Made by a program: the position numbers and the translations under genes | From: Escallonia rubra | Taxonomy: Eukaryota > Streptophyta > Magnoliopsida > Escalloniales > Escalloniaceae | DNA: 64,000 nucleotides | Direction of reading: 5' to 3' | Assembly (NCBI GenBank): GCA_033065855.1 | Contig: JAVXUO010002403.1 | Location: 48,019-112,018, forward strand | The notes under the pieces: generated by a model | What the model was told of the DNA's origin: nothing | Databases searched by the model: none | Seen by the model: the letters and a program-made list of their open reading frames with translations, nothing else | Part shown: in pieces, positions 1,236 to 44,011 of the stretch | Numbering within the stretch: the stretch's first letter is position 1 | Layout: every line of letters starts with the position of its first letter

Positions 1236-2743
1236 TGTAACATCCCCGAAAATCCGGAGCTCCGTCACCCCGAACTCCCGGGTCGTTAACCTACCGGATC
1301 ACATCAAACCTGTCAGATTTACTCACTAACACATACTCCAAAACATCAAATCCGACACCATCTTAAATTCTTCAAATACAAGCTTACAAGACTGCCTAAG
1401 CTCAAACTGTTAAAATCTAAGTTCTTTACAAACTCGAGTCCTTATAAATGAATCGACAGTACCGACCCGCACAGGGGTCTCATTACACGGAACTGGCAGG
1501 CTCGCCGGAGCTCACACAGATTCTAACCCATTCCCAAATCTGCTACAGCTTATCCTCACCTGCAGAAGGGAGTCAAACGAAGGGTGAGCTTTTGAGAGCT
1601 CAGTAATGTCGCACAAGGACTAACAACAGGATTACAAGCGATTCCGAAGAATCTAACTAATGAAACTTCCCAGAATACTTCAGATGGTAAAAAAAACTCA
1701 ACGCTTTTCAAAAGGGTCAAAACTCATCAGAAATAGATACCAAAATAAACCAGAACAAACACGACAGATTCCAAATCAATCAATAACAGATCATTTTCAG
1801 AAAACAATGAAGATTTTCCAAAGAATTTCAACAGAAGCACAAATCATTTCAGATAATACTTTCCAGATTTCCGTAACAGTCACGGCAGTATACAGAGCAG
1901 ATAAAATCAAAAATCAACGTTGATCCTGGGCAATAGCAATGTCATTCCGGCAAGCTAACATAATGTACACATGCATGATGTACCAGAATAATTACTAGTC
2001 CACTTGGGTACTAGCCTGCATTCCATGCAGGATTCAGACCAGCCTTATAACGCCCGCCTCAAAACAGAACAGAAAACCCAGGTCAACACAGAAAAATCAA
2101 CAATATCAATGAGCATTAACATAAGCTCAATCACCGAAATCAATTCAGATTCCAATAACAATAATCATACTGACATAAGTCAGCATTCAAAATTTTCAGA
2201 AGAAATCAGAATTTTCACCGGAATCAGATCAGATTTCAATAACCATGACTTATCAAAATAAGTCAGCATTCAGAATTTCCAGAAGAAAATCACAATAAGT
2301 AGCAAAACGATTATCGGATTTTGGCATAACAATTCGGAAGAATGGGATACAAAGAATTATCAAATTTACTCAGTATGAAATACATGCGAGCATCACAAGA
2401 TTTCCAAATAATCGATTCAGGTTCAATATTGGAGTTTCTAGGCAATAACATGCTGATAGCAATACACAATTCAGAGTTCGGCATTAACCATAAGTGAATC
2501 AATGAGTACTTACGAGTACGAGTTATCAAAATAAGGGTTCGGACAAAAGTCCTTACCCAGGGTTCAGATAGAATTCCTTATCTGGATCCGTAGCTAAACT
2601 ATCTAACCGGAAGTCTTTAACGTTAACCTAAACGGAATAATCAAACCATTAGAACACGGACTATAGCAAAATATTATAACTTAATACAAACTCACACATA
2701 CTCCCAAAATGAACCTTCCTCACCGCGTATGTAAAATTATCAA

Positions 2744-2818
2744 GGGTAAATTACACTAAATATCCCTGAGGTTTTACGTAATTACACTCCACTACCGCTA
2801 TCTTTAAAAATTACACTC
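2744..2818 (+). repeat. Left terminal inverted repeat of the Pack-MULE
   Basis: Begins GGGTAAATTACACTAAATAT and pairs with the reverse complement of 3941-4015. Two T/C differences near position 20 are the only mismatches I counted. Confidence 0.9.
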
Positions 2819-2910
2819 AGCTCAAAAAGTAACTTTTTCTTTTACGGTGTTAATGATGCAATGCAAAAAGACATGAATGCCCCTCACAAATGTCAAATCC
2901 CCAGAGAAAC

Positions 2911-2932
2911 CCTCTCTCTCTCTCTCTCTCTC
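2911..2932. repeat. (CT)n microsatellite inside the Pack-MULE
   Basis: About eleven CT units. On the minus strand it would encode the Arg-Glu run seen at the end of the captured reading frame. Confidence 0.9.
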
Positions 2933-3249
2933 GCGCCATATTCCCCGATTTTTCGCTCGGCAGTGGCTGCTGGAGTCGGCGCCACAGCAGTTACCGGCAA
3001 AATAAATCTCGGAGGGAAGCACCTTTGGCACGTAGACCCATACCGGACGGGCTTGATTTCGGTGCCCAATGCCACGCAAAGGACATCGACGGAGAGGGCA
3101 ATAAACGATTTGGCAATCTTCTTCTCTTTTTTTCTTATGGGATGTTGTTGTATCTGTTCCGGGAACTTCACGCCGGCAGTTTGTGCCGCCGGAGATTGAA
3201 GTTTGCACCAGTGAGAATCTTGATTGAGGTGGTGTCACGGTTCCTGTCT

Positions 3250-3540
3250 TGGGGTTAGTAACCTTCTGAAGCTTGGTATCGAACTTGAGAATATTCTCCC
3301 TCTTCTTCCTCTTCTCCACCTTGTTTGTCCTTATCTCCTCCTTGAGCTCTGTAATCCTCTCCTTGTACGCCACCTTTATCTCGTTCTCTTTGGCCCTCTG
3401 CTCGAATGTACTCCTCTTCAAACTCACCTTCGAGGAGGATGATCTGCGGCCAGAGACCTTCCCGGCGATGACGCCGTTGTATGTCGGGTTTCCGAACACT
3501 AATTTGTTCGGATCTGCGTCGGAAAGGACGGCTTGTCTCT
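3250..3540 (-). pseudogene. Captured fragment of a CGR1/CCDC86-like rRNA-processing gene
   Basis: Read on the minus strand this gives GVIAGKVSGRR, then STFEQRAKENEIKVAYKERI, TELKEEIRTNKVEKRKKRE and TKLQKVTNPKT. That order is typical of the basic, coiled-coil CGR1 family (plant CCDC86-like proteins), nucleolar factors for 60S ribosome biogenesis. It is recognised from family knowledge, not by a search. The reading frame is open through this part and continues from the adjacent J-domain piece with no stop between them. Relative to the family it looks internally shortened: the usual charged segment between KKRE and NILK is missing, and so is the C-terminal basic tail. It lies inside a Pack-MULE, so it is a transduplicated fragment. 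Expression is unknown. Confidence 0.75.
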
Positions 3541-3604
3541 TGGATGATGAGGGGATCGACATCCATGGAACCATCGGCATCGGCGCCATTAACACGGTGT
3601 CCTC

Positions 3605-3733
3605 AGTGGGGGAGAAGCCGAACTGGGAGAGCTTGTCCGGGTGGTGCTAGAGGGCAAGCCGGCAGTAGGTGGAGCGAATCTCGTCGACGGTGTAATCGCG
3701 GCCAAGCCTTAGCACCTCGTAGTGGCACCGTTT
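3605..3733 (-). pseudogene. Captured J-domain fragment of a JJJ1/DNAJC21-like gene
   Basis: The minus strand reads KRCHYEVLRLGRDYTVDEIR, then STYCRLAL, a TAG codon (plus-strand bases 3648-3650), then HHPDKLSQFGFSP. This matches the N-terminal J-domain of plant JJJ1-type co-chaperones (KRCHYEVLGL...LALQ.HPDK), which stimulate Hsp70 and act in late 60S maturation. The HPD tripeptide needed for Hsp70 stimulation is intact at 3636-3644. The TAG stands where the family usually has CAG (Gln). The fragment covers helices I-II and the HPD loop; helices III-IV are replaced by the CGR1-like piece. This is therefore a chimaera of two captured genes that both belong to ribosome assembly. Confidence 0.75.
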
Positions 3734-3940
3734 CCCGGAAACACCATGTTATACGGCGTTTAGGGTTTTTCTTTTTTTGGAGAATAGTATATGTATTTTT
3801 TGCTATAAAATGTTACAAATGGGGTATTTTGGGTATGAAAATAACAAAAAGTAGTGTGTCAGGGAATCTTTTCACGGAGTTGGGTCTGCCGTTAAATATG
3901 TGTAGTTGTGTGTAATGCGGGTACAAACCTCGGGGGGATG

Positions 3941-4015
3941 GAGTGTAATTTTTAAAGATAGCGGTAGTGGAGTGTAATTACGTAAAACCTCAGGGGTGTT
4001 TAGTGTAATTTACCC
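3941..4015 (-). repeat. Right terminal inverted repeat of the Pack-MULE
   Basis: Reverse complement begins GGGTAAATTACACTAAACAC and matches the left TIR through the block ending AAAAATTACACTC. Confidence 0.9.
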
Positions 4016-5762
4016 AATTATCAAAATGCCCCTCTCGGACTTAAATCACCCAAACGGCCTTCCCGTAAGTAGAATCACCCAAATAACCCTATTGTATGTC
4101 AATTTACACAAAAATACCTTTCTTAGGTCAAATTACCAAAATACCCCTTTGGGGGCAAATTACCAAAATGCCCCCGGGGGTTTCCAGCACCGGAAAAATC
4201 TCAAAATATCTTAAAATGCCATTTTAAGCATCCTGATATCATTTCTGGTCTAAAAAGTATTTTAAAGAATTTTCACCTGAAAATCCCGAAACCGATGTTC
4301 CGACCGAGCGCCAAAAGGCCAGTTTCGCGAAAAATGAAAAAATACCTACCGGCCTCAGAATGGCCCAAAATTTTAGAATATGAATCATATCAGTAAAATA
4401 GAGTTTCCATAAAACTTTCAGATTAAAATAACTTAGTTTACTAGGTTAAATAAATTCGGACTTCCGCCTAATCGATACTCTAATTTAACGCCCTTCGCGG
4501 ATACCGAAAATTCCTAAAAATTTCTAGAACGTACGTCTCGTAGAAATAATGTGGGTTACTGTTTTGGACTTTATCTAATTTTGCTTCTAACTATTTATGA
4601 AAATTCGTGGGAAAAACTGCCTAAAGTAATTTTGATCTTTAGCGACAATAACGATCACTATTCAAATTAATACACACACTAGTTCACCCAAACTGCACAC
4701 GGCTGTCTTCTTCCTTCAGCCCAGATTTTCATCCCACAAACACTTCATGAACACCAATTGATTCACTTCCAATCCGTTCTAAATTATTATGAATGCATTA
4801 GATTACCTTAATTACACTCTAACACACCCATAAACACACAATTTAACCCACAATCCTACACCTACACCATAGCCGAACCATAAACACACACAAGAACACC
4901 CCCCCTGCACACACACTCACATACAGTCACAGTAAACACGCTAAAACACACACAAAATCCCGAATTACTCCACAACACACCCACCAACACTTGTTTATAC
5001 ACACTGCTGCACCTTTGATCCATTTTTTGACATAAATACAACACATATACTCACGCAGATACACTGTCTTCCCCCCAACAAGTCACTAAAATTCATCCCC
5101 TTCCCTCATACTCACTTATTGACATATAATCTTGCGAATCATGCTCATAAAATAGCTGAACATACACACTTAACTCCCTGACTGTTTAGCCGTGTTCATG
5201 GCCACGCCATCCACCGTGCAAAGCTCAAACTCTCTCCCAAAAATTAAGATTGCAGACTAGGGAAAAGGGGAAAATTACCTTCAAGTTCTTCTTCACTCTC
5301 TCTCTTTCTCTCTTCGAATTATTCGGCTGAGATTTCCCCCATCCACGAAGGTTCCCCTGTTTTTTTTCTCTTCTCTGTTTCTGGTTTCATTCTCTGTTTT
5401 GTTTCTTGCTTTAATTTCCCGAATTTCTTTTCTATTTCTTTTGTTTGAATTTTATCCAATACTTTTGTTTAACATAAAATTCCCTGAGTCATCAGATCAC
5501 ATAGCAGGAGGTGGCGCCAACTTAGAGAATTTCCTCCAAAATGTGATACCAAGACACAAAATTACAAAATAGTCCCTCAAGTTTTCAAAATTACAAAAAT
5601 GCCCCCAAAATTTTTAAAAAAATTATATTTTTGTCCAAAAATTCTTTTAAGCTTCGATACTCTACTAACACTCGAACATTGCTCAAATTTAGCGCCCGTT
5701 TATTTCTCAGGTCACGAATGACTATTTTAAACAGCTCCCGAAATTCGGGATATTACATTTCT

Positions 5763-11370: not shown

Positions 11371-14300
11371 ATGGAGGTCAGCGGGGACAAGGAGGTCGAT
11401 GGGGCCAAGGCGATGCCTGCCGAGCCGGTACCCGTTCTGAAAAAGTTGAAGCAGAAGATGTGGGTGAAGCCACGAAATGGTGCGACGAGCGCAGCGCGGC
11501 CACCACGAACTGCGACGACAGAACCGGTGCCGCCCCCACCGATAGATGAGGACGAAGCTGCGGTAGGTGGTGAGACGGGAATGCCATTTACATTTGATGA
11601 TTCATTGGGGAGAACGTATGATCCGGACCCGGATAAGACGAACACGCTGCTGAGAGTAAAAGGGGTAGTACCGACCGTGCCTGACCGGGAGTTATGGAGG
11701 GAGTTGGCCATCCGAGTAGCTGATGGTGCGTTCACAGTGCCTTGGAGTGGTGCGTCACAGGAGCCGCGAGTGCCGTCACCGTATGTGCGGGCTACGAGCT
11801 GGGAGGATGCGCATGTGCCGTCACCGAGGTATGTTGCGGGGGTGTTGGTGGAGCGGGAGGATATACCCTGGGCACCTGTGGTGTTCAGGGCCATGGTGCG
11901 ATGCCAATTGGGTGGGACTTCTGGTGTGAGCATATGATGGAGACGCCGAGGTGGTCAGCGTTATTGCAGGTGTTGGGGTTGGTACCGGCGATTGACATTA
12001 CAGCAAGGGGGCTGGAGTTGTATAGAGATACGCCTGGGATGGCCCTGTTTCTGTCGAGGTGGAGCACTCAGACACATACCTTTGTGACTGAGTTTGGATA
12101 GATTGGGCTGACGTTGTTGGATGTGATGATGTTGACGGGACTGCCGATGCATGGAGAGTTGGATGGGCGTGTCACGCGGCTCAGTGGCGAGGAGCGGCTA
12201 TTGCAGATGCAGCTACTTGACATTTTGGCGAAGATGAGGCAGCACCGGAAGGTGACATATAGTGGGTGGCTCCGATTGTTCTATGGTACGCCGCAGCTGA
12301 GGTCGAGGCAGAGATTGGGCAATGTTGCCCACTTCGTGATGGGGCCGTATCACAAGGACGAGCGATACAAGATGGTGGCCTTCTTGACGATGTTCTTGTC
12401 GAGGTAAGTATTATGTGTTCCATTGTTTGGATGATTGTACATGCGATGCTAGTTGAGGTTGTGTATAATGTGTTGTCGTGGTGTTGCAGATTCGTGTTTG
12501 AAGGGACGCCAGATGACGGCATTTCCTCGAAGGTGATTCCCCTGGCGATTCGGATGGCGCAGGGGAAGCATGTTGGGCTAGCTCCCGTGTATCTGGGCAC
12601 CTTGTATTCACGGCTGGATCAGTTTGTGAATGAAGTGAAGAGATCGCACGGGCGGTACCAAGTGGCGACGTACGTGGATTGGATGTTCCTACAGCGGTAC
12701 TTGTACGAGTGTTTTCTGGATTATCGTCCGGCAGGATACCCGCTTGAGTATCCAGTACCGAGGACAAGGACGGTGATGCACGGTGGCAGGTCGCAGGAAG
12801 TGGCGCTGTGGTGCAGCGGCTCACGGGCATTTGCATGGGCGAGCATCAAGAGACCGGAGTGTCCGTTGTCACAGCTGATAGACTCGAGGGAGGCATGCTT
12901 AGCACGGCCGTACAGAGAGATGCATGCGTCATATGGAGTATCCCCCTGGTTGCACGGACAAGAGATGACGATAGACTTGAGCAGGAGGGGGAGTTTGCCA
13001 CCGGCAGACGTTGTGCTCTTGGTGGCTTATTTTCCAGGTTGGCTGCCAGTGATGACTGATGATGGCGGGAAGCCTACAGAGAACCTGTTGTCGCGGACAT
13101 TTGGCTATGACTTGGAACCGCCGTGTGGGTATCGTAACCCGTGGAGTGTGACGACCGCATTCGGGTATACGCGGTATGACAGAGTTTGTGAGTGGCCGGC
13201 GTCGGTGGTAGCATGGAGGAAGCTGGGGAGAGCGGCAGTGGGGGCGGTGACGGGGGGAGTATGCACAGTAGTGGGAGCGTCTGCGGACGGTCTGGACAGA
13301 GTGGTTGGCACAGCCATCGGGGACACGGTGACTGGTTGACGTGTTTGCCTGTGACCGGGCTGTCTGGGCGGAGCTGCGAGGCAGGCTGGCATGCTGGTGC
13401 TAGTGATCGGGAGTGCGGTTGTGAGCTCGGAAAGAGATCCTGATGAGGAGGGCGAGGAGTCTGAGGAGGATGCCCTGGCGGAGGACCAAGGAGAGGAGCC
13501 GGTGGTGTCGGTGTCGAGGGTGCCAGGGGCCGGCAAAGGGCCGCTGTCGGCACTGTGAGTTGGGATGATGGAGAGTGCTCGTCAGGCGAGTGCGGGTACT
13601 TCAGGCTCATGGCCGACAGGCTCGCAGAGGCCGTCAGATGCGTCGGAAGAGCCAGTGGTTGAGGTAGGCCTGACTATTGCCGCTTTTGATTAAATCTTGT
13701 TTATTGATGTCATACAATAGGAAAAAATGTTGATATGCTAACGGCTGGTTTGGACAGGCGTACGAGGGACACGCGGTGCAGAGGGGCGGTGATGCAAATG
13801 TAGCGGTTGAGACAGAGGAGGTGAGAGCAGCCGAGGTTGACGAGCCAGCAGGCGGAGATGAGCCGGTAGCGGCCGACATGTCTGGGGCCGAGGCGAGGGG
13901 CAGGGTGAATCCACTACCAGATGTTGAGGAGAAGGTGGAGGACGTGTATGGCGGCTTGGTCGACGAGTCGCTGATGTTCGATGCCAGTGGCTACTGGTGG
14001 ACAGGCACGGCAACGGAGGCCGCGGTGGTTGAGCGGGAGGATTTGGTGGAGTTGAAGCCTGCAGTGGAAGTCCCGATTCAGGAGGCGGAGATCCCGATGC
14101 AGTCGGTGCAGTCTGTTGCGGGGGCGTCGTCAGGGTCGGCTGTTGAGGCGAGTGCGACGTTGATGGCGATGCACTCGATGACCGTCGGTGTACAGGCAGC
14201 AAGAGGAGTCCGCGAGAGGCCTGTGATGGTGGTGAGTGGCACAGCAGCTGGAGAGGCGAGCAGGGGATCGTCGAGCGGCCAGACCGACATGGTAGTGTGG

Positions 14301-17186: not shown

Positions 17187-17900
17187 TCAAGTTCGAGTCC
17201 CTTTTATACGTAATGACTTAGCCCCCATGTTGATAGCTAGTAGGAGGCCGATGACGAAGGCCTCGTACTCAGCTTCGTTGTTAGATATCGGGAATACAAG
17301 CTTGAAGGATAGAGATATGGTAACACCCTCTGGGTTCCGGAGGACAATGTCGGCACCTCCTTGCCGGAGGGGAACTCCATTGCGACCTTTGCTAGTGGCT
17401 GAGCAGTAGAACTCGAGCGTCCATAATTCATCGATGTCAGAGATCAGGGCTGTCTCTTCCCCAGGCAATTGATGTGAGGTTGGTTCATAGTGTTGGCGCG
17501 GGAAGAAGGCCAAGAGGTCCGCGAGTGCTTGGCTTCGTAAAGCCGTAGGATTTTTTATGGATAGGTCGAATTCGGCCATGAGCAGCAACCAACGAGTAAG
17601 TCGGCCAGACAGGGCAGGGCGCGTGAGCATGTATCGTAATGGATCAGCCTTGGTGACGAGTGTAATCTGGTGTGACAAGAAGTAGTGCCTGAATTTCTGC
17701 GAGGCATAGACCAAGGCGAAGCAATGTTTTTTGAGTTCAGAATAATTAGCCTCGGGTCCCCTGATTGACCGACTGAGATAATAAATCAGGCGCTCCACTC
17801 CGTCCACTTCTTGAGCAAGTAACGCCCCTATGGATCTGGGCGTGGAGGTTAAGTAAAGCAAGAGTGGTAGACCTCGTTACGGCACAACCATTGTTTGCGG
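17187..17900 (-). pseudogene. RNase H region of element A
   Basis: The minus strand gives LYLTSTPRSIGALLAQEVDG, LIYYLSRSIRGPEANYSELK and SHQITLVTKADPLRYML, the standard end of Gypsy RT and its RNase H (RT_RNaseH_2). A second RNase H-like block with NEAEYEAFVIGLLLAINMGA follows, a hallmark of the Tat lineage (dual RNase H). 16350-17187 continues pol without a clear open frame. Fossil. Confidence 0.8.
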
Positions 17901-28418: not shown

Positions 28419-30284
28419 TTACAGTAGATGATAGTTCTCTATTTTTTTCTGGTGAGAAATGCAATGGGTCAACAATAATCTAAGTTCTACTCCTCCCGAT
28501 ATGGAAGAGTAGTGCCAAAGAGTCCCTGCGAAGCATGTTGTCTGCATGTGGAAAAATTCAAGGACCCGTAACTTTTTTAACGAACAAGATTTCTGACCTT
28601 GTTTGACTTGGCCATCTGAACAAGTACTATCACAAGGAAGGGAAGAGGTAGCCTTAAGCTCCTCCAACTTGTCAACAGGAACACTTGCCCTAACTTCCTC
28701 TGGCCTTATTGCACCTCCTCTCTCTCTTCGTTCTGTTAACAGCTTCTGTGTAGCCTCACTTCCTAGTTGCCTTTGATTCTCCAAATTGCTTTCTTGCTGT
28801 CTTTCCTCCCCTTTAAGACCGAGTACAGAAACACAAGTCCAAGAATCCGGATCATGACCAAAATCCGATTGCTCAGCACCGGCTCCTTGTAGCTTGAATT
28901 TCTGTTCAACATCAGAAGCCTGCATACAAGGAAATGTTATTCTACCTCTTACAACGACGAATGAAAAATACCACCATGAGAATAAGATAGCAGAGGACTA
29001 GTCAAAATCAAAACCTGGGAATCCTTGGGTTTTTTGGAACCTTTCTTCTTTTTTTTATTACCCAATTTCCCCTTTGTATCCTCAATCTGATCACATTTTC
29101 TGCTGATATTCTCGCTGCTATCTAGTTCGATCTCTGCTAACAGTGCATCTTGTACAGCATCCGCCTTCCTGGAAAGCAGATCCATCAAGCGTTCCTGGAA
29201 AGGGTAAAGTCTGACAATGTTAGCAAACAGGGCCCATAACTCCAAGTGTTTCTGAGAATTTATTTGCAGACAAACCTTCATGAATAACTTCAGCAGTGGC
29301 TTCACAATCCGCTGGTAGTCATTAACAGACGTACTTACAAGTAAAAGAGGTAGCTGCTTCACCGTGCACTGTTGAATTGCGGCAAGCTGCAAGGCTTAGT
29401 AAAGTGAGACCATGAGGTAAATACTGAAGAAACCAGTACGCGACAGTTGTTTCTGAAGCGTTAGGAAATTCTGCCACATGCATAATAGAATTACTACGGT
29501 TGGAGAAGCAAAGAAACGAGTGGGTGGAATATTGCTGGCGTGAGTTAAAGATTAAATGATAAACAATCTGAAGATAAGTAACCTAAATCAATAAAAGGAA
29601 GGAACACATAAACTATTCCTAAAAAATAAATAACAATAGGAGTGACGGATTGCCTGCAGATACCTTTTTTGTTTTCCGGTCTATCCAACGTTGTAAGATT
29701 GTTTCAATTTGCGTATCTGCTCCTAACAACCAATTTATGAAACTAACACCATGAGCAACAACAGAACCATCGCAACCATCAACAATAGGATTGAAAATAC
29801 CGCAAGCCTCTTCATCCTCTCTTGGGGATGGGAGATATAACGCGTCACCACTAGCACTAACATTAATAAAAACCTGTTCCTTAAGCTTCCTCTGGTTGAA
29901 AAAATTGGCAAAGTACCCTTCTGAAAGTGGTGGGATGCCCTTGATGTGGTGGGTTTGAATGTGATAAAGGAAGGATTTAGTATCAGGAGTCATGTCCTCA
30001 TCACAGAAGCTGCAGTCCCAGAACCTCCATGTGTGATGCTCTTTTGCATATCCAACAGCTTTTACTAAAATTTCTGCCCCTAAACCACCATTGATCTTAC
30101 TGTAATGTTCTATTACATGTTCAACTCTAGGCAGGAAGACTGATTGTTTCTCTCCATGACTTGAGTTTTCCCAATGTGGCAAAGCCCGCTCAGCTGCTCC
30201 TTGAGCTTCCATCGTCCCTTTTCCCTTACCTGCCTTCTTTTTGTCTGCCATCATTCCTGAACCAAGCGGTCGACAAGATGCCAT
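28419..30284 (-). CDS. DUF629-related protein gene, four exons
   Basis: Predicted exons on the minus strand: 30284-29664, 29386-29276, 29194-29015 and 28919-28419, with introns of 277, 81 and 95 bp. All have GT...AG borders and all are phase 0 (for example AAAAAG/GTATCT and TTGCAG/CTTGCC), giving about 470 residues. Exon 1 starts MASCRPLGSG; a second start (MMADKKK) lies ten codons in. Residues around 70-100 carry WRFWDCSFCDEDM and FLYHIQTHH, a C-x2-C...H-x4-H finger as in plant DUF629 proteins, the N-terminal part of inactive ubiquitin-hydrolase-like proteins. Exon 3 ends in a Lys-rich stretch (NKKKKKGSKKPKDSQ); exon 4 has the NLENQRQLGSEATQK helix. The hydrolase domain of the long family members is not present here, so this is a short or truncated paralogue. 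A donor-like AAG/GTCAG at 28598 may allow another 3' end. Confidence 0.65.
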
Positions 30285-41376: not shown

Positions 41377-44011
41377 TTAGAGTTTGAGCTCTCCGGACGC
41401 AATCTTGTCGGCGAAGACAAACTTGAGGCCCCTGTACCACTTGAGGCCGTGACCGACCTTCCGATGATAGGGGCAGTAGTTGTGACGGGCTAAGTCTTCC
41501 AGGGTAGGTTCATTGTCAACATTGGGCAGGGTTATGGCATTGTCATTGATCCATGTCTCGAGGAGATTTCTAACAGTCTTCAAGTCACACGGGTATTTCG
41601 GGGCAGGCATCGGCTGCCCTCTCTTGTCAGAACGCCCATCCCTTCCTTGGGACCGACGCTTGCCGTTGTTGTCGTCGTTACTAGCTGCTTCCAGCGTCGT
41701 GGCCAAGGCAATATGAGGTTGGGGCTTTGGGGTCTTTGACGGACCGACCGAGTCATATGTGTGTCGTGCAGCTTCCTTGAGATGTCCCAACTGGATGTTT
41801 TCAAGGTTGACCTTGTGGAGGTCATTCATGTTGTTGCTGCAAATGGGCGCAAGGGTGTCATCCTTGCTGAAGTCAGTGCGCTGCAAGCACTTGTGGTGCA
41901 ATCGCGTAACATAGGTGTTGAGGTCTTCCCCGGGGTTCTGGCGGATTTCGGTGATGTCAACGATGGTCACCCGTTCCGTCTCATAATGAAATTTGTCAAG
42001 GAAGAGCTGGACCATGTCGGACCATGAGTGGACAGTATTGTCGAGAATCTGATAATACCAAGAGTAGGCGAGACCAGTCAGTAGAGTTGTCAAAGGGCCG
42101 GGCTGGGGCCGGCCCAGCCCAAGCCCATCGGGCCTGCTGTGGGGCCGGGCCAGTGGGGCTGCCAACCGGGCCGGGCCGGGCCTGCCGAAGGCAAACCTAG
42201 GCCCAATATCTAGGCCCGGGCCCGGGCCCTTTTTTTTTTTTAACAAAATTCTTTAGCTATTCTTCGTATAACAAGAATTAATACTTACTAAATTTGGTTG
42301 ATAGCATTTTACAATAATAGGAAGTTGTATCTATTGTAGCATTACCAAGAAATTGACACTAACCATATTTAGTAGTCATCAATATCAACAAATAGGAGGT
42401 TGTATCTTCTAGTTACAATCCAAGTTGCAGGTAAAATAATCTTTTTGTTTTTTTCATATTCCAAGCCACTGCTAGTCTCATAAGAATAGCAATCTAGCCT
42501 ATCATAATCTTGACCTTTTTTGACCTTTTGAAGATTTCTCAAACTTGTCATCTTTAAAGGACTACTAATAATTTAGTATAAGAGTTATGAATTGTTTATT
42601 GTAGACCCACAACAAAATCTAATTCCGTATCATTTCAATCTTTGCGACAAATATATCTATAAGTTCGAACTCATGTGGACTTATTAGTAGTGGAATTTTG
42701 GAAAAGGGGTGGAAGAAAGGGAAAAAAAAAAAAAAAAAAAAAGTGGGGCCAAACCGGGCCGTTTTCGGGCCGGGCCGGGCCGGGCCGTTTTCCAGATTTT
42801 GAAGGCCTGGTCCAGGCCCAGGCCCTCTGCACGCGGGCCGCTACTGTTCATCGACGGGGCCGGGCCAGCCCGGGCCAGAACCGGGCCGGGTCGGGCCAGC
42901 CCGCGGGCCGCCCAGCCCGTTTGACAACTCTACCAGTCAGGGACTTGTGAAATTCTCGAAGCTTCAAAGTGTCGTCCTCCCCGTAGTGCTCCAGGGAGCC
43001 AACAAAACGGGTGAGGTGATCGCGGGCGTTGCCCTCTTTGCTATTGAACAAAGTGAAGGATGGTTGCTTGTACTTAATGGGGTAAGGCTTGGTAGCAAGG
43101 CTACCAGAGTAGGGAGCATGGCCTGACAGCTTAGAGGGGGAGTGGGGTAAGGATGACTGCTTGAGACGGTGAAGGAGGGCATCAAGGTCATGCTTGGTGA
43201 CGTACGACGCATGTGAGGGTTTGTGCCCTGTCGTGATGATCCGAGCACCAGAGCCCCCAGACGGTACAACCTGAGGCATTGAGGGGATGACGATGGTAGA
43301 GAGGGGTTGGTGGTGGTGAGCAACTTGTTGGGGCATGGTTTGCACATGGGTAGTGTCAGCTGCTGGAGGCCGGTCGTCAGGAAAGGTCGACTGGAGTAAG
43401 CTGGGGGAATGACTTGTGTTTAGGTTTCGGCTGGTTATGATCGGGTTAGGCTCCATCTCAATTGATTTGTGAGTCTCTGAAGTGCTTTGATCAAGGGTAA
43501 GGCGTGGCGCCAGGGGCTGAGGTGCCGCAAGTCCTACTGTCGAGTGCCCGAAGGACCAAGGCAGCGGTGGTCGCGACACTGGGACCTGAGGAATGTCCAA
43601 AACTAGCCCATGCCTTGAAGGTTGGATATGAGCAGGAGGGGCCAAACCTGGATCTTGGGATAACACGGGGTGAGTAATGGGCACAGGGTGCAGAGCTCTA
43701 AGGCTTTGGGAAATCGGTGATTGTGAAGTCAAGACTTGGATTGATTTTTTCATTGCCACCATAGCTGTCATAAGATTGGCTATCGTGGGCGAAAACTGTT
43801 GGATGGCCGCGTTGACTGCAACATGTATGTCAGGTGCGGTAGTTTGTGGCTGGTCTTGGGGACGCACAACACTGGTCCCCTCTTGTTCACCCGAGTGGTC
43901 CACTTCTTGCACGGCATGGATAAGGCCCTGGCTGGCAGCCCTCGTAACTTTTCGTTGTCTAGGCATGGAGACTGAGTGCGGAAGATAGACATACTGCAGT
44001 ACGATGCTCAC
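41377..44011 (-). pseudogene. gag region of element B
   Basis: The minus strand begins with a leader ending in SMPRQRKVTRAASQG, then a Pro/Ser/His-rich part, then the Retrotrans_gag core (ARDHLTRFVGSLEHYG, LREFHKSLTG, YSWYYQILDNTVHSWSDMVQ, LFLDKFHYETERVTIVDI) and a knuckle-like CPYHRKVGHGLKWY. Close relative of element A gag. It is interrupted by element K (42082-42932). Fossil. Confidence 0.85.
42082..42932. mobile_element. hAT-type non-autonomous element (K) with GGGCCGG-rich ends
   Basis: 851 bp. Ends TAGAGTTGTCAAAGGGCCGGG and, inverted, TAGAGTTGTCAAACGGGCTGG; the 8-bp TSD CCAGTCAG lies at 42074-42081 and 42933-42940. GGGCCGGGCC repeats fill about 100-200 bp at each end, while the middle (42240-42700) is AT-rich. 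There is no transposase. It sits inside gag of element B. Confidence 0.9.

What the first reader, a model, noticed from the sequence alone, without database searches (positions are those of the whole stretch)
2744..4015. Chimaeric Pack-MULE fusing a JJJ1-type J-domain to a CGR1-type ribosome-assembly protein
Seen: near-identical 75-bp TIRs, a 9-bp TSD, and on the minus strand a J-domain with intact HPD followed in the same frame by a CGR1-like basic coiled coil. Known: JJJ1/DNAJC21 and CGR1/CCDC86 both act in 60S ribosome biogenesis, and Pack-MULEs capture and fuse gene fragments. Inference: two captures, from genes of one pathway, joined in one open frame apart from one TAG in the J-domain. 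An antisense or small-RNA effect on the parent genes is possible.
Basis: partly seen in the sequence, partly recalled or inferred. Interest (0 to 1): 0.75.

Follow-up and report, generated by a model that had tools for sequence, protein, structure and literature searches.

The report
Chimaeric gene-fragment-carrying Mutator-type transposon
This is a real but ordinary plant transposon that picked up broken pieces of two ribosome-assembly genes, multiplied to eleven known copies in the same genome, and now appears to be decaying without any detected selection on its fused reading frame.

Summary
At 2744-4015 lies a 1,272-bp element with 75-bp inverted repeats (73/75 identical) and an exact 9-bp target duplication. 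Its minus strand carries a JJJ1 fragment (21 nt of 5'UTR, the ATG, about 51 codons) and a CGR1/CCDC86 fragment (codons 33-164). The host genome, inferred to be Escallonia rubra, holds one intronless CGR1 gene and two JJJ1 gene loci on other contigs, so these were two captures. Every CGR1 match found is that gene or one of 11 fused elements. A third, repeat-derived piece follows CGR1.

Many sibling elements carry JJJ1 without CGR1, most with the same capture junction and with nested JJJ1 intervals, so JJJ1 was probably captured first and CGR1 added once.

The functional reading is not supported. JJJ1's ATG is out of frame in 11 of 11 copies, CGR1 was joined out of frame and shifts again, the J domain ends just after HPD, the J-CGR1 frame is closed in 5 of 11 copies, and substitutions look neutral. 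A sibling carries an F-box fragment instead, so the shared pathway looks coincidental. This is a new member of a known kind, a chimaeric Pack-MULE. Small-RNA effects on the parents remain possible and untested.

The parts
2735..2743 (.). target-site duplication AATTATCAA (left)
   Evidence: exact match to 4016-4024
2744..2818 (+). left terminal inverted repeat, 75 bp
   Evidence: 73/75 identical to the right one; 868 first-look candidate places in the genome, 40 scored
2819..2952 (.). left subterminal region of the MULE, includes a CT simple repeat
   Evidence: stretches of its TIR-side part are shared with J-only sibling loci at 86-95%
2953..3245 (-). third captured piece ('tail'), from an unidentified repeat; borders approximate
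   Evidence: 34 of 46 match rows of window 2960-3250 lie outside the fused copies (59 candidates, 40 scored). Four of those loci fetched: all match the tail, two also the 38 nt beyond it, none matches J or CGR1
3246..3593 (-). CGR1/CCDC86 fragment, codons 33-164 of the 187-codon gene, lacking two 24-nt stretches and with a 1-nt insertion near 3550
   Evidence: 81% identical including gaps to the parent gene G000:C2913:566419-566979
3595..3768 (-). JJJ1 fragment: 21 nt of 5'UTR, ATG at 3745-3747 (out of frame by a 1-nt deletion), about 51 codons, TAG at 3647-3649 two codons before HPD
   Evidence: 88% identical to JJJ1 gene G000:C1645:22711-24624 over -21..+153
3769..3940 (.). right subterminal region of the MULE
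   Evidence: matched in each of the 27 J-only loci examined at 82-91%, and over 117 nt in the J-less element L028 at 95%
3941..4015 (-). right terminal inverted repeat, 75 bp
4016..4024 (.). target-site duplication AATTATCAA (right)

Best explanation
The element is a non-autonomous Mutator-like transposon (chimaeric Pack-MULE), most likely of Escallonia rubra. Shown: it has MULE-type ends with 9-bp target duplications and carries a 5' fragment of JJJ1, an internal fragment of the intronless CGR1 gene, and a third repeat-derived piece. It is present in 11 places as one subfamily. Inferred: an ancestral element captured the 5' end of JJJ1, amplified and lost parts of it by internal deletion; one descendant then acquired CGR1 and the third piece and amplified again, moved in trans by a MULE transposase. 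The fused reading frame is a by-product, and the cargo decays neutrally. If it acts at all, the likeliest route is small RNAs with long exact matches to the two parent genes.
For: Ends: of 21 elements examined, 16 have an exact 9-bp TSD, 3 have one mismatch, 1 lies in an AT repeat with 8 bp exact, and 1 has none. Of 18 further J loci, 10 have an exact 9-bp TSD; two of these share one sequence. Parents: one intronless CGR1 gene plus 11 elements, nothing else at E <= 0.001; JJJ1 at C1645 and C1644. One origin of the fusion: the 11 fused J copies form one branch, 96/98 (the bootstrap had not settled). JJJ1 first: in 11 of 13 J-only rows aligned, the same subterminal sequence runs into JJJ1 5'UTR, with nested JJJ1 intervals of about -98..+554, -40..+208 and -21..+153. 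Neutral decay: CGR1 pN/pS 0.93 in the true frame (0.88 and 0.53 in the wrong ones). Private changes in fused CGR1 are 13 synonymous against 16.4 expected under a context-matched null, in fused J 10 against 8.6. The frame is closed in 5 of 11 copies and the JJJ1 ATG is out of frame in 11 of 11. The window copy and three gene-model copies change 7-10 of 50 conserved CGR1 columns, gaps included, against a median of 0 and a maximum of 6 in 119 ordinary homologues (the columns were chosen on those same homologues, which lowers their counts).
Against: The frame is still open in 6 of 11 copies, and four E. rubra gene models use the block as an exon. [quoted passage not shown] The number of substitutions is small, so weak selection would be missed. 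The position of the fused J branch relative to the J-only elements is unresolved in the tree (87/0), so a second, independent JJJ1 capture cannot be ruled out. No transposase-bearing element with these TIRs was identified.
Confidence: 0.92

Rival explanations
1. The elements act as a mobile exon: a splice acceptor inside the captured JJJ1 codons (AAG|CGG, just before RCHYEV) lets the J-CGR1 block be spliced into transcripts of genes where the element lands, creating new fusion proteins.
For: Four gene models (P0121-P0124) use the block as one uninterrupted exon that starts at or within a few residues of RCH (exactly at R in P0122 and P0123); no other part of them matches within 1.5 kb of the element at E <= 1e-3. 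AAG|CGG is present in 9 of 11 fused copies.
Against: Two of the four partners are transposon protein domains, Transpos_assoc and Integrase_H2C2, which is typical of mis-joined predictions. No selection is seen. No transcript could be examined here. The window copy has lost the AG.
Confidence: 0.1
2. Small RNAs from the element repress the parent genes JJJ1 and CGR1 in trans.
For: All 11 copies share 21-mers and 24-mers with both parents; the longest exact match of the window copy is 52 nt to CGR1 and 25 nt to JJJ1. Captured donor genes in maize have been reported to give more siRNA (passage in PMC12030055).
Against: No small-RNA or methylation data could be examined. The maize passage itself adds that the conflict may not affect gene function. 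The J fragment is also in many sibling elements, so for JJJ1 the fusion adds nothing specific.
Confidence: 0.2
3. Two independent JJJ1 captures: the fused subfamily took JJJ1 itself and did not inherit it from the J-only elements.
For: The J tree leaves the fused branch unresolved. The fused right subterminal region resembles the J-less element L028 (95%) more than the J-only ones (82-91%). Two of 13 J-only rows aligned, L067 and L025, do not have the shared junction.
Against: The same subterminal sequence, absent from L028, runs into JJJ1 5'UTR in the four fused rows and in 11 of 13 J-only rows aligned, with nested intervals and an A-run at the junction, as expected from an internal deletion.
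Confidence: 0.25
4. Co-capture or co-retention of two genes of one 60S-assembly pathway is meaningful.
For: The relatives of both parts are named as JJJ1 homologues and as rRNA-processing CGR1 or CCDC86; the shared 60S pathway is recalled.
Against: A sibling element combined the same J fragment with an F-box fragment, and others with cargo that Pfam did not name. No constraint was detected on either part.
Confidence: 0.03

Closest known systems
Chimaeric Pack-MULEs (rice, Jiang et al. 2004, as described in passages of PMC12030055 and PMC13317346)
   Same: MULE with TIRs and target duplications carrying fragments of more than one host gene. PMC12030055 states that about a fifth of rice Pack-MULEs hold pieces from multiple loci and that some captured segments are expressed as chimaeric transcripts.
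   Different: Host is Escallonia. The parents are JJJ1 and CGR1, and siblings with JJJ1 but no CGR1 survive beside the fusion, so the order of capture can be inferred.
Tgm-Express CACTA gene-fragment carriers of soybean (PMC1947982; title and start of abstract seen)
   Same: A transposon carries host gene fragments that give new exon combinations by splicing.
   Different: CACTA elements have other ends and 3-bp target duplications (recalled); here the duplication is 9 bp.
Host genes JJJ1 (DNAJC21) and CGR1 (CCDC86)
   Same: Source of the two fragments: 88% DNA identity for J, 81% including gaps for CGR1.
   Different: Truncated: about half of the J domain (Pfam positions 2-33 of 63), the rest of JJJ1 absent, and CGR1 without codons 1-32 and its last 23.

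Membership tests
Pack-MULE | terminal inverted repeats of Mutator length | tested here: met
   75 bp, 73/75 identical; matches to this TIR at 90.7% or more at both ends of the 21 elements, which were chosen by similarity to this one
Pack-MULE | target-site duplication of 8-11 bp (length range recalled) | tested here: met
   9 bp exact here; 16 of 21 elements exact 9 bp; 10 of 18 further J loci
Pack-MULE | carries fragments of cellular genes whose parents are elsewhere in the genome | tested here: met
   CGR1 gene C2913 and JJJ1 genes C1645 and C1644
Pack-MULE | no transposase of its own | tested here: met
   none of the seven ORFs of 90 aa or more inside the element matches a transposase family in Pfam
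Pack-MULE | shares its TIR with a transposase-bearing MULE of the same genome | tested here: inconclusive
   MULE transposases are plentiful (150 scored of 3,309 candidates) but none was tied to this TIR (868 candidates, 40 scored)
Chimaeric (multi-gene) Pack-MULE | fragments from two or more unlinked genes in one element | tested here: met
   JJJ1 and CGR1 lie on different contigs; third piece from another repeat
Functional J-domain protein | complete J domain with HPD and a usable start | tested here: not met
   profile positions 2-33 of 63; TAG two codons before HPD here; ATG out of frame in 11 of 11 copies and HPD changed in 3 of 11
Domesticated transposon gene | purifying selection on the reading frame | tested here: not met
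   no excess of synonymous private changes over a context-matched null in fused J (P 0.34) or CGR1 (P 0.90); 23 and 48 changes only, so weak selection is not excluded

The most novel reading that the evidence does not exclude
The J-CGR1 block is a mobile exon. A splice acceptor that arose inside captured JJJ1 codons travels with the transposon and splices the same peptide, made by an out-of-frame fusion, onto whatever gene lies upstream, so one Pack-MULE subfamily seeds several new fusion proteins in Escallonia rubra.
Probability: 0.08. Interest if true: 0.6.

Novelty: new member of a known kind. Interest (0 to 1): 0.3.

Why it matters
Chimaeric Pack-MULEs are well known. What is useful here is that one genome still holds apparent intermediates: elements with a long JJJ1 piece, a shortened one, a tandemly doubled one, and one fused to CGR1, beside the parent genes. 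The history of capture, shrinkage and fusion can largely be read from sequence alone. It also gives a warning: four published E. rubra gene models, one of them labelled CCDC86 and three J-domain proteins in UniRef, are built partly on this transposon.

Tried and rejected
Single fused host gene: rejected. CGR1 matches in the genome at E <= 0.001 are the intronless gene and the 11 elements only. Retrocopy capture could not be tested, because the CGR1 match is one unbroken 187-codon stretch with no introns to lose and the JJJ1 match at C1645 is one stretch over codons 1-628 (two in-frame stops noted by the tool). Same-pathway selection: rejected as above. Purifying selection on a J frame in J-only siblings: pairwise pN/pS over codons 1-50 was 0.33 (0.70 and 1.47 in the wrong frames), which looked promising. 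Over codons 1-71 it was 0.64, against the JJJ1 gene 0.95 and 0.91, and private changes fit a context-matched null (17 synonymous, 14.8 expected, P 0.28), so not claimed. The same tests scatter widely in stretches without a coding role: the tail read as coding gave pN/pS 2.79, 1.73 and 0.18 in its three frames, and a wrong frame of CGR1 gave the strongest synonymous excess (P 0.08). Origin of the tail: four loci fetched gave no identifiable gene. A Pfam scan of seven translated pieces of sibling elements named an F-box and a J domain only; the LEA-2-like reading of L025-L027 is from memory and Pfam did not support it. Literature: no paper held has 'Pack-MULE' with 'DnaJ' or the letters GGGTAAATTACAC; some searches were used as listings. 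PMC2648092 is not held. Of PMC10759652 I read part 1 of 2 of its text; of PMC13317346 and PMC12030055 passages only. Tying the TIR to a transposase led nowhere.

Full report
What was claimed and what is there. The finding gives 2744-4015 as a chimaeric Pack-MULE. The ends are real: 75-bp inverted repeats at 2744-2818 and 3941-4015, 73 of 75 identical, and an exact 9-bp duplication AATTATCAA on both sides. The window holds no match to the end pattern beyond these two, and none is expected by chance.

Cargo. On the minus strand a DnaJ domain is found at E 1e-8, limited to profile positions 2-33 of 63. The CGR1 piece is below Pfam's cut-off (E 0.017) but is 72% identical over 90% of its length to Escallonia herrerae CCDC86 (E 2.9e-34, the best of 230 matches). 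J-domain relatives lead to JJJ1 of E. herrerae and other plants. So a profile search alone would have under-called CGR1; the protein search settles it.

Host genome. The genome search was unanswered many times and then succeeded. The window is contig C2171:48019-112018 of an assembly of 566,129,122 bases in 3,222 contigs. The published E. rubra assembly is 566 Mb in 3,233 contigs (PMC10759652). Four E. rubra proteins (P0121-P0124) lie on contigs of 215,581, 791,130, 1,712,763 and 217,547 bases, the lengths of C2575, C1745, C1712 and C3129 here. I therefore take the host to be Escallonia rubra.

Parents and copies. A search with E. herrerae CGR1 protein scored all 56 candidates and gave one unbroken full-length gene (C2913:566419-566979) and 12 rows in 11 elements, nothing else at E <= 0.001. 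JJJ1 is at C1645:22711-24624 and, cut by the contig end, at C1644:86384-87490; 68 of 170 candidates were scored. CGR1 and JJJ1 lie on different contigs. The fused element has ten copies that span the whole query or nearly so, the window's own and nine others at 89-94% identity, plus one (C382) split by an insertion of about 6 kb in the tail. Nine-bp duplications are exact in 16 of 21 elements examined, one mismatch in 3, 8 bp within an AT repeat in 1, none in 1. Among the 11 fused copies: 7 exact, 3 with one mismatch, 1 in the AT repeat.

Exact borders. JJJ1 sequence runs from -21 to +153 relative to its ATG, window 3768-3595. CGR1 runs from codon 33 to 164, window 3593-3246, lacking two 24-nt stretches and gaining 1 nt near 3550. 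The first 14 codons kept (identical to E. herrerae CGR1 residues 33-46) are read in a different frame from the rest. So the fusion was out of frame when made, unless a small indel at the junction is hidden, and a 1-nt insertion, seen in the frames of all 11 copies, brought most of CGR1 into J's frame. JJJ1's ATG has a 1-nt deletion after it in all 11 copies, and a stop lies upstream in J's frame with no ATG between, so J cannot start from within the element. A third piece, about 2953-3245, follows; 34 of the 46 match rows of window 2960-3250 lie outside the fused copies (59 candidates, 40 scored). The four such loci fetched match the tail but not J or CGR1, and no gene could be named in them.

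Order of events. Siblings with related ends carry JJJ1 without CGR1. Of 27 J-only loci compared with the JJJ1 gene (L019-L027 and L065-L082; a part of the 68 places), seven carry up to -98..+554 (L065-L071), most others about -40 or -36 to +208, several with a second, tandem J copy, and L025-L027 a 5'-truncated J. Fused copies carry about -21..+153. In an alignment of 4 fused and 13 J-only rows, the same subterminal sequence, ending in TATTCTCC or a near form and an A-run, precedes JJJ1 5'UTR in all 4 fused and 11 of 13 J-only rows; L067 and L025 have other sequence there, and the J-less relative L028 lacks it. This fits one JJJ1 capture followed by internal deletions. In a tree of 50 J rows (142 nt, bootstrap not settled) the 11 fused ones form one branch with support 96/98. 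Against this order: the tree does not place that branch among the J-only ones (87/0), and the fused right subterminal region is closer to J-less L028 (95%) than to J-only siblings (82-91%), so recombination between elements or a second capture stays open.

Function. The J-to-CGR1 frame is open in 6 of 11 copies (L009, L012, L013, L014, L017, L018) and closed in 5 (TAG in L001, L011, L016; frameshift in L010, L015); HPD is changed in 3 (L009, L011, L017). Pairwise pN/pS in CGR1 is 0.93 in the true frame and 0.88 and 0.53 in the others; in J it is 0.59 against 0.57 and 1.02; the tail, read as coding, scatters from 0.18 to 2.79. Private changes against a null matched for base, transition and CpG context: CGR1 13 synonymous of 48 (16.4 expected, P of as many or more 0.90), J 10 of 23 (8.6 expected, P 0.34); wrong frames gave P from 0.08 to 0.81. 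The window copy and three gene-model copies differ at 7-10 of 50 columns that are at least 95% conserved in 119 plant CGR1 proteins, whose own median is 0 and maximum 6. That contrast is partly built in, because the columns were chosen on those proteins. Mean pairwise divergence of ten copies is 3.8%, about 2.7 million years at a recalled rate of 7e-9 per site and year. I conclude that the cargo is most likely passenger DNA.

Why the shared pathway is probably not meaningful. Another member of the family holds different second cargo: L079 encodes an F-box at E 5.8e-6 beside a nearly complete J (profile 3-60 of 63), and L020 has a similar frame that was not scanned. L025, L028, L067 and L082 hold further sequence that Pfam did not name. 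No constraint was detected on JJJ1 or CGR1 in the element.

Gene models. Four E. rubra gene models contain the block as one uninterrupted stretch starting at or near RCH. Their other parts include a Transpos_assoc domain and an Integrase_H2C2 domain and, by the database's listing, a B3-type domain (PF02362; name recalled). None of these parts matches within 1.5 kb of the element. Mis-joined predictions are likeliest; real splicing is not excluded.

Small RNAs. All 11 copies share exact 21-mers and 24-mers with both parents; the window copy shares up to 52 nt with CGR1 and 25 nt with JJJ1. The effect is possible and could not be tested here.

Verdict. A genuine chimaeric Pack-MULE with two verified gene captures and a third piece, amplified and apparently decaying.

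Noticed in passing
L079 (C1093:299900-301470) and L020 (C2899:37246-38976): Sibling elements with a JJJ1 fragment plus an F-box gene fragment on the opposite strand; Pfam F-box E 5.8e-6 for L079, L020 not scanned.
   Followed up: partly
L025, L026, L027 (C2692, C1595, C1552): Elements that join a different, membrane-protein-like coding fragment to a 5'-truncated J (sequence seen in L025 and L027). It looks like an NDR1/LEA-2 type protein from memory, but Pfam gave no match.
   Followed up: partly
L053, L055, L056, L058: J-only elements with JJJ1's ATG in frame and an open 72-aa nearly complete J-domain frame (4 of 17 ATG-bearing copies listed). Pairwise pN/pS hints at constraint in codons 1-50 but private changes do not.
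   Followed up: partly
L019-L021, L023, L024, L073, L074: Tandem duplication of the captured J fragment inside single elements.
   Followed up: no
P0121, P0122, P0123, P0124 (E. rubra gene models RJ640_025060, RJ640_015106, RJ640_014561, RJ640_029756): Published gene models built partly on this transposon, labelled J-domain or CCDC86 proteins in UniRef; likely annotation artefacts.
   Followed up: partly
L067 (C1749) and L068 (C436): Two J-only elements with the same 9-bp duplication TTTGAGTTT and neighbouring in the J tree, so probably one insertion in a duplicated or allelic segment.
   Followed up: no
P0004 (E. herrerae RJ639_023597): A second, diverged CGR1-like gene model in E. herrerae with 14 of 55 conserved columns changed and 4 gapped, possibly a pseudogene or another captured copy.
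   Followed up: no
window 17190-17861 (-), 41380-42246 (-), 12266-13336 (+), 29622-30284 (-): RT_RNaseH, Retrotrans_gag, plant mobile domain (below Pfam's cut-off) and DUF629 matches among 15 ORFs of 200 aa or more scanned: retrotransposon remains and other fragments in the window.
   Followed up: no
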